Part shown: positions 23,387 to 32,782 of the stretch, piece by piece | Numbering within the stretch: position 1 is the stretch's first letter | How the letters are laid out: each line of letters opens with the position of its first letter | Source of the DNA: Streptococcus porcinus | GTDB taxonomy: Bacteria; Bacillota; Bacilli; Lactobacillales; Streptococcaceae | DNA: 64,000 bases | NCBI RefSeq assembly: GCF_901542335.1 | Contig: NZ_LR594036.1 | Coordinates: forward strand, 124,001 to 188,000 | Direction: 5' to 3' | The notes under the pieces: generated by a model | Seen by the model: the letters and a program-made list of their open reading frames with translations, nothing else | Told to the model about the DNA's origin: nothing | The model's database searches: none | Translations under genes and position numbers: made by a program

Positions 23387-24160
23387 TTAAAAATAGCAAT
23401 GAATCTGATGTTGAAGAAAAACTTGGCGATAATCTTCTAAATCTTCCGGATGATAGGCTGGTACGTCAGTCATTTGGTAGTCTCGTCCGAGGAGTTTGTA
23501 TTTATTTTCGCCGAATTGATGGAAAGGTAATAATTGGACTTCACTGATTTCTAGTTGATTAAAAAGTTCTGAGAAGGCTTTAGCATCTTCTAAAGAATCA
23601 TTAAAATTGGGGATAATAGGGATGCGTAGGACAATCTCTTTGCCCATTGCGAAGGCATAATGAATATTTTTGATAATCAGGTCATTGGTGACACCTGTCA
23701 TTTTGCGGTGCCTTACTTGGTTATAGTGCTTTAAGTCTGTATAGATGAAATCTACATACTGTATCAGATCAATAAATTGTTCATGTTTAGCATAAGCTGT
23801 TGTTTCAATGGCAGTATGGAGGCCTTTTTCTTTGGCAGCTTTGAGGATAGCCTTGGCAAAATCATATTGAGCAAAAATTTCACCACCAGATAAAGTTAAG
23901 CCACCGCCAGATTCTTCGTAAAAATCGAGATCTTTTAAAACGTCCTCGATGACCATATCAACTGTTTTAACTTCCCCAACGGTCTCATAAGTTTGTCCGT
24001 CTGATTTAAGCATCTGCTCGGGTTGTTTTTTTTGTGATTCTGGATTAGCACACCAGGGACAACGCAGGGGGCAACCTTTTAAAAAGACAGTTGTCCGAAT
24101 ACCCGGACCATCGTGGATACTAAAATGCTGAATATTAAAGACAATGCCTGATTCTGTCAT
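23387..24160 (-). CDS. pflC: Glycyl-radical enzyme activase (radical SAM, PflA/PflC type)
   Basis: 257-aa radical-SAM enzyme. The cluster motif CPLRCPWC (C-x3-C-x2-C, about residues 30-37) follows IHDGPGIRTTVFLKG. GGGLTLSGGE binds S-adenosylmethionine. It is expected to install the glycyl radical on the lyase encoded at 28512. It has no insert with extra ferredoxin clusters, unlike choline-lyase-type activases. It diverges from the deoR gene across the 63-bp palindrome. AAAGGA precedes the ATG. Confidence 0.9.
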   Translation of the reverse strand: MTESGIVFNIQHFSIHDGPGIRTTVFLKGCPLRCPWCANPESQKKQPEQMLKSDGQTYETVGEVKTVDMVIEDVLKDLDFYEESGGGLTLSGGEIFAQYDFAKAILKAAKEKGLHTAIETTAYAKHEQFIDLIQYVDFIYTDLKHYNQVRHRKMTGVTNDLIIKNIHYAFAMGKEIVLRIPIIPNFNDSLEDAKAFSELFNQLEISEVQLLPFHQFGENKYKLLGRDYQMTDVPAYHPEDLEDYRQVFLQHQIHCYF

Positions 24161-24191
24161 AGTTCAAAATCCTTTCCTAGTAATCTAATGA

Positions 24192-24254
24192 TAGCAAATA
24201 AACGTAAATAAATCAATTACGTTCGTAAGTTGATTTATTTACGTTTATTTGCTA
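24192..24254. promoter_or_regulatory. 63-bp inverted repeat, probable DeoR operator
   Basis: Perfect 25-bp arms (24192-24216 and 24230-24254; core TAAACGTAAATAAATC) flank a small inner palindrome TTACG-tt-CGTAA. It lies between the divergent activase and deoR genes and covers the likely -35 of deoR, whose -10 TATAAT is at 24265-24270. Confidence 0.7.
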
Positions 24255-24287
24255 AGAAACCTGATATAATAGATGTTGAGGTGAATA

Positions 24288-25031
24288 ATGAACAGATTAG
24301 AGAAAATCATTCAATTAGTTTCGGATCATAAACGTATTGATGTTAACAGTTTATCAAAACATTTAGGAGTTTCGAAAGTAACCGTTCGAAAGGATTTAGA
24401 TAAACTAGAGAGTAAAGGCCTTTTACATCGAGAACATGGTTATGCTGTTTTAAATAGTGGTGATAACTTAAATGTACGCTTGTCCTACAATTACAATATT
24501 AAACGGAAAATCGCAGAAAAAGCGGCCGAATTGGTCCAAGACAATGATACAATTATGATTGAGTCGGGCTCAACTTGTGCTTTATTAGCAGAGGTCCTTT
24601 GTCAGACGAAACGCAACATCAAAATCATTACCAATTCTTGTTTCATTGCTAATTTTCTAAGGCAATATGATTCTTGTCAGATTATTTTATTAGGTGGCAA
24701 TTATCAGCCTAATTCTGAGGTAACGGTTGGACCTTTACTTAAACAGATGGTTGATCTTTTCCATGTTGATCGGGTTTTTGCAGGAACGGATGGCTTTAGC
24801 CCCAAAATTGGTTTTATGTGTAAAGACATGATGCGTTGTGAAAGTGTACAATATATGGCGGATGCGGCGGAAGAAACGATTATTCTGACTGATTCTAGTA
24901 AGTTTTTAAAAGCTAGTCTGGTTCAACAGCTTAGCCTTGACCGGGTGGGGCGTGTTATTACTGATCAAAACCTTGATAAAGAGAGTCAACAACTGCTAAA
25001 CTCCTTTGGGATTGTTTTAGACTATGTCTGA
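24288..25031 (+). CDS. DeoR-family sugar-catabolism regulator
   Basis: 247-aa regulator. The N-terminal DeoR winged HTH is at residues 5-55 (DVNSLSKHLGVSKVTVRKDL). The C-terminal DeoRC sugar-phosphate sensor contains MIESGSTCALLAE, ILLGGNY, VDRVFAGTDGFS and ILTDSSKF. It probably controls this locus through the 63-bp palindrome immediately upstream and senses a phosphorylated intermediate. TATAAT at 24265-24270 gives a leader of about 10 nt. It is followed at once by a second regulator of the SorC family. Confidence 0.9.
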   Translation: MNRLEKIIQLVSDHKRIDVNSLSKHLGVSKVTVRKDLDKLESKGLLHREHGYAVLNSGDNLNVRLSYNYNIKRKIAEKAAELVQDNDTIMIESGSTCALLAEVLCQTKRNIKIITNSCFIANFLRQYDSCQIILLGGNYQPNSEVTVGPLLKQMVDLFHVDRVFAGTDGFSPKIGFMCKDMMRCESVQYMADAAEETIILTDSSKFLKASLVQQLSLDRVGRVITDQNLDKESQQLLNSFGIVLDYV

Positions 25032-25045
25032 TGGTGTAGGTGTCT

Positions 25046-30929: not shown

Positions 30930-30943
30930 GAGTAAACAAAACA

Positions 30944-31612
30944 ATGGAATATATGTTAGACACTTTAAATTTAGATGAGATAAAAAAGTGGAGTCGGATT
31001 TTACCACTAGCTGGCGTCACATCAAACCCAACAATTGCTAAAAAAGAAGGGGCTATTGATTTCTTTGAACGTATCCGAGAGGTGAGAGCAATTGTTGGCG
31101 ACGAGGCCTCTATTCATGTTCAGGTTGTGGCTCAAGATTATGATGGTATTTTGAAGGATGCTGAGGAAATCCGAAAACAGTGTGGTGAGTCAATATATGT
31201 TAAGGTTCCAGTAACTAAAGAAGGCTTAGCGGCTATTAAAACTTTGAAAGCAGAAGGTTACCATATTACAGCAACGGCTATTTATACGACTTTTCAAGGT
31301 CTTTTGGCGATAGCGGCTGGTGCTGACTACCTAGCTCCTTACTATAATCGTATGGAAAATCTTAATATTGACCCTGCTGTTGTGATTGGTCAGCTTGCTG
31401 AAGCTATTGACCGTGACTTCTCAGAGAGCAAAATTTTAGCGGCTAGTTTTAAAAATGTAAGTCAGATTAATCAAGCTTTTGCTCAGGGAGCTCAAGCTAT
31501 CACAGCTGGCCCAGATGTCTTTGAAGCTGGCTTTGCGATGCCATCAATTCAAAAAGCAGTTGATGATTTCGGCAAAGATTGGTCTGATAACTACGGTAAG
31601 GATATGATTTAG
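30944..31612 (+). CDS. fsa: Fructose-6-phosphate aldolase-type transaldolase (FSA/TalC/MipB)
   Basis: 222-aa TIM-barrel class I aldolase close to E. coli FsaA in pattern. The Schiff-base Lys is K87 in YVKVPVT. Gln at position 60 (HVQVV) is the residue that marks FSA activity rather than transaldolase. LAPYYNR and ILAASFKNV also align. It probably splits 1-deoxyfructose-6-P into hydroxyacetone and glyceraldehyde-3-P. It begins 14 nt after the lyase, in the same transcript. Confidence 0.9.
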   Translation: MEYMLDTLNLDEIKKWSRILPLAGVTSNPTIAKKEGAIDFFERIREVRAIVGDEASIHVQVVAQDYDGILKDAEEIRKQCGESIYVKVPVTKEGLAAIKTLKAEGYHITATAIYTTFQGLLAIAAGADYLAPYYNRMENLNIDPAVVIGQLAEAIDRDFSESKILAASFKNVSQINQAFAQGAQAITAGPDVFEAGFAMPSIQKAVDDFGKDWSDNYGKDMI

Positions 31613-31642
31613 CTCAAAGCTGATATGAGAATTAGCTTTGAG
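31613..31642 (+). other. Intercistronic hairpin between fsa and gldA
   Basis: CTCAAAGCT / AGCTTTGAG 9-bp stem (31613-31621 / 31634-31642) with no T run after it. It may set mRNA stability or relative expression. Confidence 0.5.
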
Positions 31643-31687
31643 AAAAACTTAAACAATGCTATTAATAAATAGAAACGAGGACTTATC

Positions 31688-32782
31688 ATGAAAATTTTTG
31701 CAAGCCCATCACGTTATATCCAAGGAAAAAATGCTCTCTTTGAAAATCATAAGGTTATTCTAAAACTTGGAACTAAGCCAATCTTACTTTGCGACGATAC
31801 TGTTTATCAGATTATTGGTAAGGATTTTGAAGATTATCTCCATAGACAAGGTATACTAGCTGACCGTGTCCATTTTAATGGTGAAGCATCTGACAATGAG
31901 ATTAAACGCGTTGTTGCAATCGCTGAGGAACAAAATAATGATCTAATCATTGGATTGGGTGGAGGTAAAACTATTGATAGTGCCAAAGCTATTTCAGATG
32001 AATTAGGTGTTCCTGTTGTTATTGCACCAACTGTAGCCTCTACAGATGCTCCGACGTCCGCTTTATCAGTTATCTATACGGATGAGGGGGCTTTTGAAAA
32101 ATACATTTTTTATGCTAAGAATCCTGACTTAGTCATTGTTGATACACAAGTTATCTGCCAAGCTCCAAAAAGACTATTGGCTTCTGGTATTGCAGATGGT
32201 CTGGCAACCTGGGTCGAAGCGAGAGCGGTTTTGCAAAAAAATGGTGAGACAATGGCTGGAGGCCATCAGTCCTTAGCAGGGATTGCGATTGCCAAAGCTT
32301 GTGAAGAAACCCTCTTTGCCGATGGCTTGCAAGCGATGGCTAGTTGTGAGCAAAAAATAGTGACCAAAGCCTTGGACAATGTTGTAGAAGCAAATACTTT
32401 GCTCAGTGGCTTAGGATTTGAAAGTGCAGGTCTAGCTGCTGCTCACGCTATTCATAATGGCTTTACAGCATTAGAAGGAGATATTCATCATCTGACTCAC
32501 GGTGAAAAAGTTGCTTACGGCACTTTGACTCAGCTCTTCTTAGAAAATCGCCCTAAAGAAGAAATTAATAAGTACATTTATTTCTATCAAGCGATTGGTA
32601 TGCCGACAAGTCTAAAAGAGTTGCATTTAGACAATGCTAGCTATGAGGATCTCTTGAAAGTTGGTCAACAAGCAACGATAGCTGGTGAAACAATCCATCA
32701 AATGCCATTTGATATTACGGCAGAAGATGTTGCTGCCGCCCTACTTGCAGTTGATGCTTATGTCAAAAACCTTACTCGCTAG
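31688..32782 (+). CDS. gldA: Glycerol/hydroxyacetone dehydrogenase
   Basis: 364-aa iron-type, Zn-dependent polyol dehydrogenase. The nucleotide loop is GLGGGKTID. Metal ligands are the Asp in GIADGLATWVEA and the His residues in AAHAIHNGF and LTHGEKVAYG. The expected reaction with NADH is hydroxyacetone to 1,2-propanediol in this pathway, or glycerol to dihydroxyacetone in the reverse sense. Last gene of the lyase operon. Confidence 0.93.
   Translation: MKIFASPSRYIQGKNALFENHKVILKLGTKPILLCDDTVYQIIGKDFEDYLHRQGILADRVHFNGEASDNEIKRVVAIAEEQNNDLIIGLGGGKTIDSAKAISDELGVPVVIAPTVASTDAPTSALSVIYTDEGAFEKYIFYAKNPDLVIVDTQVICQAPKRLLASGIADGLATWVEARAVLQKNGETMAGGHQSLAGIAIAKACEETLFADGLQAMASCEQKIVTKALDNVVEANTLLSGLGFESAGLAAAHAIHNGFTALEGDIHHLTHGEKVAYGTLTQLFLENRPKEEINKYIYFYQAIGMPTSLKELHLDNASYEDLLKVGQQATIAGETIHQMPFDITAEDVAAALLAVDAYVKNLTR

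What the first reader, a model, noticed from the sequence alone, without database searches (positions are those of the whole stretch)
23387..32782. Glycyl-radical locus matches the anhydroglycolysis pathway
The lyase has a single Cys-x-Glu (C438, E440), so it is not a pyruvate formate-lyase. PTS, lyase, FSA with Gln60/Lys87, gldA and activase together match the E. coli YbiW/PflD-FsaA/B-GldA route from 1,5-anhydroglucitol or 1,5-anhydromannitol to 1,2-propanediol and glyceraldehyde-3-P. These genes are usually labelled formate acetyltransferase, transaldolase and cellobiose PTS. 1,5-Anhydroglucitol circulates in human blood, so it could be a host-derived carbon source.
Basis: partly seen in the sequence, partly recalled or inferred. 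Interest (0 to 1): 0.7.

Follow-up and report, generated by a model that had tools for sequence, protein, structure and literature searches.

The report
Streptococcal operon for eating 1,5-anhydroglucitol
This streptococcal gene cluster most likely takes up 1,5-anhydroglucitol, a glucose-like sugar found in food and blood, and breaks it down with an oxygen-sensitive radical enzyme like one already characterised in E. coli, which would give a job to a transporter whose substrate is unknown in pneumococcus and group A streptococcus.

Summary
The lyase is YbiW-type, not PflD-type: 53% identical to E. coli YbiW and one clade with it at 100/100, excluding the nearest other GREs. PDB 8id7 is titled YbiW with 1,5-anhydroglucitol-6-phosphate. 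In S. castoreus a window-type lyase and a PflD-type lyase share one aldolase and GldA; that PflD closely matches 8id0, streptococcal PflD with 1,5-anhydromannitol-6-phosphate, which fits one common product. In 284 genomes of the genus the PTS IIC never occurs without the lyase (71 of 71) and the aldolase tracks it (86 of 87). A box, TTGCACNNNNGTGCAA, precedes both PTS and lyase. The Cys-x-Glu motif only excludes pyruvate formate-lyase. Substrate, product, transport and growth are untested. The pathway itself is known; added here are the Lac-family PTS assignment, the operator, an activase without auxiliary-cluster insert, and a functional reading for orphan operons of S. pneumoniae and S. pyogenes.

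The parts
23387..24160 (-). Radical-SAM activase of the lyase, without the ferredoxin-like auxiliary-cluster insert
   Evidence: TIGR02494 290 bits vs 174 cut-off; 53 residues and no Cys between CxxxCxxC and SGGE, against 97 residues with 6 Cys in YbiY
24192..24254 (.). 25-bp perfect inverted repeat (13-bp spacer) between the divergent activase and deoR genes; likely DeoR-type operator
   Evidence: function inferred
24288..25031 (+). DeoR-family regulator
   Evidence: PF00455 and PF08220
25040..26029 (+). SorC-type regulator with a putative sugar-binding domain
   Evidence: PF04198 241 bits
26168..26183 (.). Box TTGCACAAATGTGCAC upstream of the PTS, proposed SorC-type operator
   Evidence: function inferred
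26319..26648 (+). PTS Lac-family IIA
   Evidence: PF02255
26676..26984 (+). PTS Lac-family IIB
   Evidence: PF02302
26991..28304 (+). PTS Lac-family IIC, proposed 1,5-anhydroglucitol transporter
   Evidence: TIGR00410 371 vs 236 cut-off; present in 71 of 284 genomes of the genus, always with the lyase
28386..28401 (.). Box TTGCACGATCGTGCAA inside a 28-bp perfect palindrome (28380-28407) upstream of the lyase, proposed SorC-type operator
   Evidence: function inferred
28512..30929 (+). Glycyl-radical lyase, YbiW type (C438, E440, G781), proposed 1,5-anhydroglucitol-6-phosphate ring-opening lyase
30944..31612 (+). Fructose-6-phosphate-aldolase-type enzyme, proposed 1-deoxyfructose-6-P aldolase
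   Evidence: NF009299 415 vs 214 cut-off; Q60, K87 conserved with FsaA/B
31688..32782 (+). GldA-type dehydrogenase, proposed hydroxyacetone reductase
   Evidence: NF006941 549 vs 336 cut-off

Best explanation
The locus is an anaerobic operon for 1,5-anhydroglucitol (AG). The Lac-family PTS imports and phosphorylates AG to AG-6-phosphate (inferred; the least sure step, about 0.6 on its own). The radical-SAM activase installs the glycyl radical on G781 of the lyase (inferred from family). The lyase opens the AG6P ring at the C-O bond, giving 1-deoxyfructose-6-phosphate (inferred from its clade, which holds AG6P-bound YbiW). The FSA-type aldolase splits this into glyceraldehyde-3-phosphate and hydroxyacetone, and GldA reduces hydroxyacetone to 1,2-propanediol, re-oxidising the NADH made from glyceraldehyde-3-phosphate (inferred). 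The SorC-type regulator controls the PTS and lyase promoters through TTGCACNNNNGTGCAA, and the DeoR-type regulator probably the activase/regulator promoter (inferred). Shown here by sequence: gene content, orthology, co-occurrence, conserved boxes. Not shown: any enzymatic, transport, binding or growth activity. The confidence below is for the lyase-aldolase-GldA core.
For: 53% identity to YbiW against 39% to PflD. YbiW and the window clade form one clade at 100/100; the nearest other GREs (L174, L155, L178; up to 52% identity) lie outside it, and L174 and L178 have no FSA match in about 18 kb (the surroundings of L155 were not fetched). 8id7 is titled YbiW with AG6P. S. castoreus carries a window-type lyase, then SorC-FrwB-FrwC-PflD-PflC, then one shared FSA-GldA; its PflD scores 1591 bits to 8id0, titled streptococcal PflD with AM6P, and passes the PflD cut-off (1230.6 vs 1109). 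Among 284 genomes of the genus: IIC with lyase 71 of 71; aldolase (>=66% identity) 86 of 87 with lyase, and lyase 86 of 87 with aldolase. Of 80 titled loci 55 have an FSA-type gene in the fetched stretch; all 25 others have an FSA-family gene elsewhere in the genome, 23 at >=39% identity and 2 at 34%. Box before the lyase in 22 of 28 and before IIA in 17 of 22 streptococcal loci, against 7 of 1400 shuffled lyase regions. A review summarises the pathway (PMC12441222, passages).
Against: No substrate, product, transport or growth was tested. YbiW ends a long branch (0.93), so specificity could have drifted. 16 of 87 lyase-positive genomes of the genus lack this PTS. 25 of 80 titled loci lack an adjacent FSA (five of them end within 2.3 kb after the lyase). 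One GRE outside the clade, L184 at 43% identity, also has an FSA-type neighbour (43%), so FSA linkage is not exclusive. Lac-family PTSs are best known for disaccharides (recalled). The box was defined after seeing the window; the rows are related (five of the 28 are S. sanguinis); in other Lactobacillales it is in 11 of 24 loci, 6 of these 11 without SorC in the fetched stretch. The number of boxes in the own genome (2) does not exceed the reversed-pattern control (3); only their place is telling. The co-occurrence test ignores phylogeny.
Confidence: 0.8

Rival explanations
1. Same chemistry, different substrate: the lyase acts on another 1,5-anhydrohexitol- or deoxyhexitol-6-phosphate imported by the Lac-family PTS, not on AG6P.
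For: Only 53% identity to YbiW; a Lac-family PTS instead of the Frw system; a pneumococcal study found no substrate for the orthologous PTS (PMC3302838, passages).
Against: The clade includes AG6P-bound YbiW at 100/100; 15 columns are invariant in the 13 YbiW/window rows and absent from the 9 sister rows.
Confidence: 0.13
2. The lyase is an AM6P enzyme of PflD type.
For: Streptococci do have PflD-type lyases (L115, L117-L119; L115 passes the PflD cut-off), and a streptococcal AM6P-bound PflD is solved (8id0).
Against: The window lyase misses the PflD cut-off by far (586 vs 1109), lies in another clade, and its close relative coexists with a true PflD in S. castoreus.
Confidence: 0.04
3. Glycerol/dihydroxyacetone fermentation operon (the usual annotation: formate acetyltransferase, transaldolase, glycerol dehydrogenase).
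For: Glycerol dehydrogenase activity of S. pyogenes depends on gldA of the corresponding operon (PMC10210942, passages); the own genome has two dihydroxyacetone-kinase-family genes near 1.42 Mb.
Against: No dihydroxyacetone kinase in the operon; the lyase is outside the glycerol dehydratase clade and is not a PFL; S. pyogenes did not grow on glycerol alone (PMC10210942, passage); a sugar PTS is in the operon.
Confidence: 0.03

Closest known systems
E. coli YbiW-FsaA-GldA route for 1,5-anhydroglucitol (Ma et al. 2024, 10.1021/jacs.4c07718; paper not read, known here through PMC12441222 passages and PDB titles, later steps recalled)
   Same: YbiW-clade lyase, FSA-type aldolase, GldA, radical-SAM activase
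   Different: Genes sit in one locus with a Lac-family PTS and two regulators; E. coli has ybiW/ybiY/fsaA and fsaB/gldA at two sites; the activase lacks the ferredoxin-like insert
PflD-FrwBC-PflC (1,5-anhydromannitol) system, E. coli and streptococci (8id0)
   Same: Shares the FSA-GldA module in S. castoreus; has its own SorC-type regulator there
   Different: Different lyase clade and a different PTS (FrwB/FrwC matches)
S. pneumoniae SP0245-SP0253 and S. pyogenes Spy1741-1745 operons
   Same: Same gene set and order as described in PMC3302838 and PMC10210942 (passages); a pneumococcal locus was compared here (L053)
   Different: Described there as mixed-acid fermentation or glycerol metabolism, PTS substrate unknown; the S. 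pyogenes sequence was not compared here

Membership tests
YbiW-type 1,5-anhydroglucitol-6-phosphate lyase | Falls in the clade of E. coli YbiW rather than other GREs | tested here: met
   100/100 support, 37-row tree
YbiW-type 1,5-anhydroglucitol-6-phosphate lyase | Catalytic Cys, Glu and radical Gly | tested here: met
   C438, E440, G781
YbiW-type 1,5-anhydroglucitol-6-phosphate lyase | AG6P contact residues as in 8id7 | not tested
   coordinates of 8id7 were not at hand; own model poor
YbiW-type 1,5-anhydroglucitol-6-phosphate lyase | Converts AG6P to 1-deoxyfructose-6-P | not testable with these tools
   needs assay
YbiW-FSA-GldA pathway | FSA-type aldolase with catalytic Lys and Gln encoded with the lyase | tested here: met
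   Q60, K87; co-occurrence 86 of 87
YbiW-FSA-GldA pathway | GldA-type dehydrogenase | tested here: met
   NF006941 subfamily met; the narrower equivalog NF047954 not met, 401 vs 700
FsaA/B equivalog TIGR00875 | Curated score cut-off | tested here: not met
   174.9 vs 245.95; it meets another fructose-6-phosphate aldolase model, NF009299, 415 vs 214
PflD (NF007437) | Curated score cut-off | tested here: not met
   586 vs 1109
Pyruvate formate-lyase (TIGR01255) | Curated score cut-off | tested here: not met
   187 vs 994
CutC, HypD, sulfopropanediol dehydratases, indoleacetate and hydroxyphenylacetate decarboxylases | Curated score cut-offs | tested here: not met
   below cut-off in all six models
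B12-independent glycerol/propanediol dehydratase | Clusters with 1r8w and 9rco | tested here: not met
   separate clade

The most novel reading that the evidence does not exclude
The conserved 'pflD-mipB-gldA' operons of Streptococcus, including the orphan PTS SP0248-50 of S. pneumoniae and the operon whose gldA is truncated in the epidemic S. pyogenes M1UK lineage, are dedicated 1,5-anhydroglucitol systems for a sugar supplied by the host (blood, saliva). On this reading M1UK has lost the terminal electron-sink step of the pathway, and the reported rise of the upstream genes after gldA loss is induction by an accumulated pathway intermediate sensed by the SorC or DeoR regulator.
Probability: 0.35. 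Interest if true: 0.75.

Novelty: new member of a known kind. Interest (0 to 1): 0.5.

Why it matters
It offers a concrete substrate for a PTS that a functional-genomics study of pneumococcus could not assign (PMC3302838) and whose S. pyogenes counterpart is still annotated as a cellobiose PTS of unknown sugar (PMC10210942). It makes the unexplained gldA truncation and operon induction in M1UK testable as a metabolic question. It would also mean that many oral and pathogenic streptococci can use a sugar that circulates in the host. If the short activases are active, GRE activation in this pathway works without the auxiliary iron-sulfur clusters that the majority of GRE activases carry.

Tried and rejected

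The first tree held two wrong rows (L086_+2697 and L094_+3440, branch length 10, probably not GREs); they were dropped. The second tree missed four rows through a too narrow motif filter; for the tree that I cite these four and L155 were added, and L138 and L121, each identical to another row, were removed. The activase tally goes by Cys count, so L186 (53 residues, 2 Cys) is counted there as having the insert although by length it lacks it; one Lactobacillales activase (L050) could not be scored; L039 and L115 are the same S. castoreus locus.

C-x-E as an argument for YbiW was rejected. True PFL, CutC, HypD and PflD identities were rejected by curated cut-offs. Literature: the searches 'anhydroglycolysis' and 'anhydroglucitol' with 'glycyl radical enzyme' found no held paper; 'YbiW' with 'PflD' found 6, 'anhydroglucitol/gut bacteria/anhydromannitol' 68 of which 20 were listed, 'radical-mediated glycolysis/1-deoxy-fructose/anhydroglucitol-6-phosphate' 48 of which 20 were listed, 'mipB/gldA/pflD/Streptococcus' 3, 'Streptococcus/glycerol dehydrogenase/...' 15, 'anhydroglucitol/streptococc/phosphotransferase system' 2, and a search on GRE activating enzymes 4. 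In the listings and in the passages that I read I saw none that ties the streptococcal operon to AG; I did not open every paper listed. Most subscription papers are not held. I did not look up Ma et al. 2024 by its identifier. 8id0 shows that streptococcal PflD had already been studied, so priority for streptococci cannot be claimed.
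Full report
What is there. The window lies at 124001-188000 of a 2,160,767-base single-contig genome; the genus is Streptococcus, judged by its named relatives. Between 23387 and 32782 are a radical-SAM activase on the minus strand, and on the plus strand a DeoR-type regulator, a SorC-type regulator, PTS IIA, IIB and IIC of the Lac family, an 805-residue glycyl-radical enzyme, an FSA-type aldolase and a GldA-type dehydrogenase. Upstream lie genes that I read as V-type ATPase subunits, downstream an ABC transporter and a two-component system (ORFs; these labels are mine and were not searched).

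Which GRE it is. The best PDB sequence matches are 6xs4 (905.7 bits) and YbiW (895.1), then glycerol dehydratase (609); E. coli PflD gets 490. Identity is 53% to YbiW and 39% to PflD. NCBIfam places it above cut-off only in the broad PFL2-3 subfamily; it fails the equivalog cut-offs for PflD, HypD, CutC, two sulfopropanediol dehydratases, two aryl-acetate decarboxylases and PFL. The genome's only other PF02901 match is PFL1. A survey of 398 phylum genomes (20 with a match at E <= 1e-170) showed that 53% is not by itself decisive: GREs at 47-52% identity exist. Those whose surroundings I fetched (L174, L175, L176, L177, L178, L179) have no FSA match in the stretch, though L176 ends near its GRE; L184, at 43% identity, does have an FSA-type neighbour. 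I therefore built a tree with them. Window clade plus YbiW form one clade at 100/100 (13 rows), and the 52% group (L174, L155, with L178) lies outside. Fifteen alignment columns are invariant in these 13 rows and absent from all 9 sister rows, among them A166, A169, S338, S341, N411, T441 and S658; I believe that several lie in active-site loops, from recalled GRE structures, not from a call. C-x-E itself is common to all non-PFL GREs compared.

Why AG6P. PDB 8id7 is titled YbiW in complex with 1,5-anhydroglucitol-6-phosphate, and 8id0 PflD bound to 1,5-anhydromannitol-6-phosphate in Streptococcus dysgalactiae subsp. equisimilis. A review states that both lyases give 1-deoxyfructose-6-phosphate after PTS phosphorylation (PMC12441222, passage of section 5.1). 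The later steps (FsaA/B cleavage to glyceraldehyde-3-phosphate and hydroxyacetone, GldA reduction to 1,2-propanediol) are recalled from the abstract of Ma et al. 2024, which I did not read; the reference is in the list of that review.

A natural experiment. In S. castoreus (L039, the same locus as L115) the window-type operon runs activase, DeoR, SorC, IIA, IIB, IIC, lyase, and then, instead of the aldolase, a second SorC-type regulator, FrwB, FrwC, PflD and its activase, followed by one FSA and one GldA. Genome-wide that species has one FSA match at E <= 1e-60 (G015); GldA copies were not counted. That PflD passes the PflD cut-off and matches 8id0 with 1591 bits. Two lyases with different PTSs ahead of one aldolase and dehydrogenase is what convergence on one product predicts. 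An Enterococcus locus (L080) also has both lyases near an FSA.

Distribution. Of 284 genomes of the genus 91 match the lyase at E <= 1e-100; 87 carry the window type (80% identity or more, fragments included; lists). The further hits are 34-39% relatives; of two that I classified, one is CutC and one PflD. The PTS IIC (E <= 1e-160) is in 71 genomes, all 71 with the lyase; 16 of the 87 lyase genomes lack it. The aldolase at 66% identity or more is in 87 genomes, 86 of them with the lyase; one genome has the aldolase alone and one the lyase alone, the latter (G126) with only part of the lyase found. Of the 25 without FSA in the stretch, five end within 2.3 kb after the lyase, and all 25 genomes have an FSA-family gene somewhere, 23 at 39-59% identity and 2 at only 34%. 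So lyase and aldolase go together widely, while PTS and GldA are looser partners. The taxa include S. pneumoniae, S. agalactiae, S. suis, S. sanguinis, Enterococcus, Vagococcus, Erysipelotrichaceae and Lachnospiraceae.

Control. A 25-bp perfect inverted repeat lies between the divergent activase and deoR genes, and a 28-bp perfect palindrome before the lyase. The core TTGCACNNNNGTGCAA, which I defined from the window, occurs with at most 2 mismatches in 12 fixed positions before the lyase in 22 of 28 streptococcal loci (window included) and before IIA in 17 of 22, against 7 of 1400 mononucleotide-shuffled lyase regions; before the lyase in 11 of 24 other Lactobacillales loci (12 of 1200 shuffled), 6 of these 11 without SorC in the stretch; and in 0 of 28 loci of other groups (10 of 1400 shuffled), none of which has SorC in the stretch. 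The rows are related, so these are not independent counts. In the whole own genome the pattern with at most 1 mismatch occurs only at these two promoters; the reversed control pattern has 3 hits, so the place and not the number is telling. I infer that SorC controls PTS and lyase together. A paper reports PflR sites mapped upstream of SP0245, SP0246 and SP0251 (PMC3302838, passage).

The activase. Between the radical-SAM motif and SGGE it has 53 residues and no Cys, where YbiY has 97 with 6 Cys and E. coli PflC 69 with 4. In Lactobacillales 48 of 49 activases of this lyase type lack the insert (1 not scorable), while 11 of 11 in Erysipelotrichales, 4 of 4 in Eubacteriales, 1 of 1 in Coriobacteriales and 8 of 9 in Lachnospirales keep it; the streptococcal and enterococcal PflD-type activases lack it too (6 rows, two of them the same gene), in a separate clade with E. 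coli PflC; L107 and, by length, L186 lack it as well. So the loss happened several times, if the tree holds (support of the Lactobacillales clade is only 88/81). Papers say that the majority of GRE activases carry auxiliary clusters of unknown function (PMC11528403, passage) and that the domain is in many of them (PMC6181972, passage); a title in a reference list says that it is required for a lasting radical in 4-hydroxyphenylacetate decarboxylase.

Links to known unknowns. In S. pneumoniae the corresponding PTS SP0248-50, conserved in the sequenced strains, was one of only two for which no substrate was found (PMC3302838, passages). In S. pyogenes the operon Spy1741-1745 is up in M1UK, whose gldA has a stop codon, and deleting gldA reproduces this; the sugar is unknown, and there was no growth on glycerol alone (PMC10210942, passages; PMC12885024, passages). 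I matched that operon by its published description, not by sequence. On the AG reading GldA is the electron sink of the pathway, and its loss should raise intermediates that induce the operon; this is inference. 1,5-AG is reported in most foods and in blood (PMC12441222, passages) and was among the metabolites measured in saliva (PMC12849494, passages).

Verdict. The pathway is known and a streptococcal PflD has been crystallised with its substrate, so this is a new member of a known kind, with a different PTS, compact regulation and a reduced activase. Nothing biochemical was shown here.

Noticed in passing
window 23387-24160; L035-L083, L086, L097 where an activase was found; L115, L117-L119, L107, L186: GRE activases of both anhydrohexitol lyase types in Lactobacillales lack the ferredoxin-like insert with auxiliary Fe-S clusters, apparently lost several times independently.
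   Followed up: partly
L039 and L115 (the same S. castoreus locus): A whole PflD/Frw module stands between the YbiW-type lyase and a shared FSA-GldA pair.
   Followed up: yes
L035:8534-9802 (S. bovimastitidis): The PTS is missing and a protein of three Rid-family domains stands between SorC and the lyase; no GldA in the fetched stretch.
   Followed up: no
L047:13133-14089, also L050 and L057 (S. suis): A divergent GldA-like protein (24-29% identity) precedes the normal GldA.
   Followed up: no
L174, L178, L175, L177, L180: GREs at 43-52% identity to the lyase, without an FSA match in the fetched stretch (some next to PTS or, by my reading, sugar kinase or deaminase-like genes): sister groups of unknown substrate.
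   Followed up: partly
window 24192-24254: Unusually long perfect 25-bp inverted repeat between activase and deoR; the 18 related loci scanned do not keep it at this length.
   Followed up: partly
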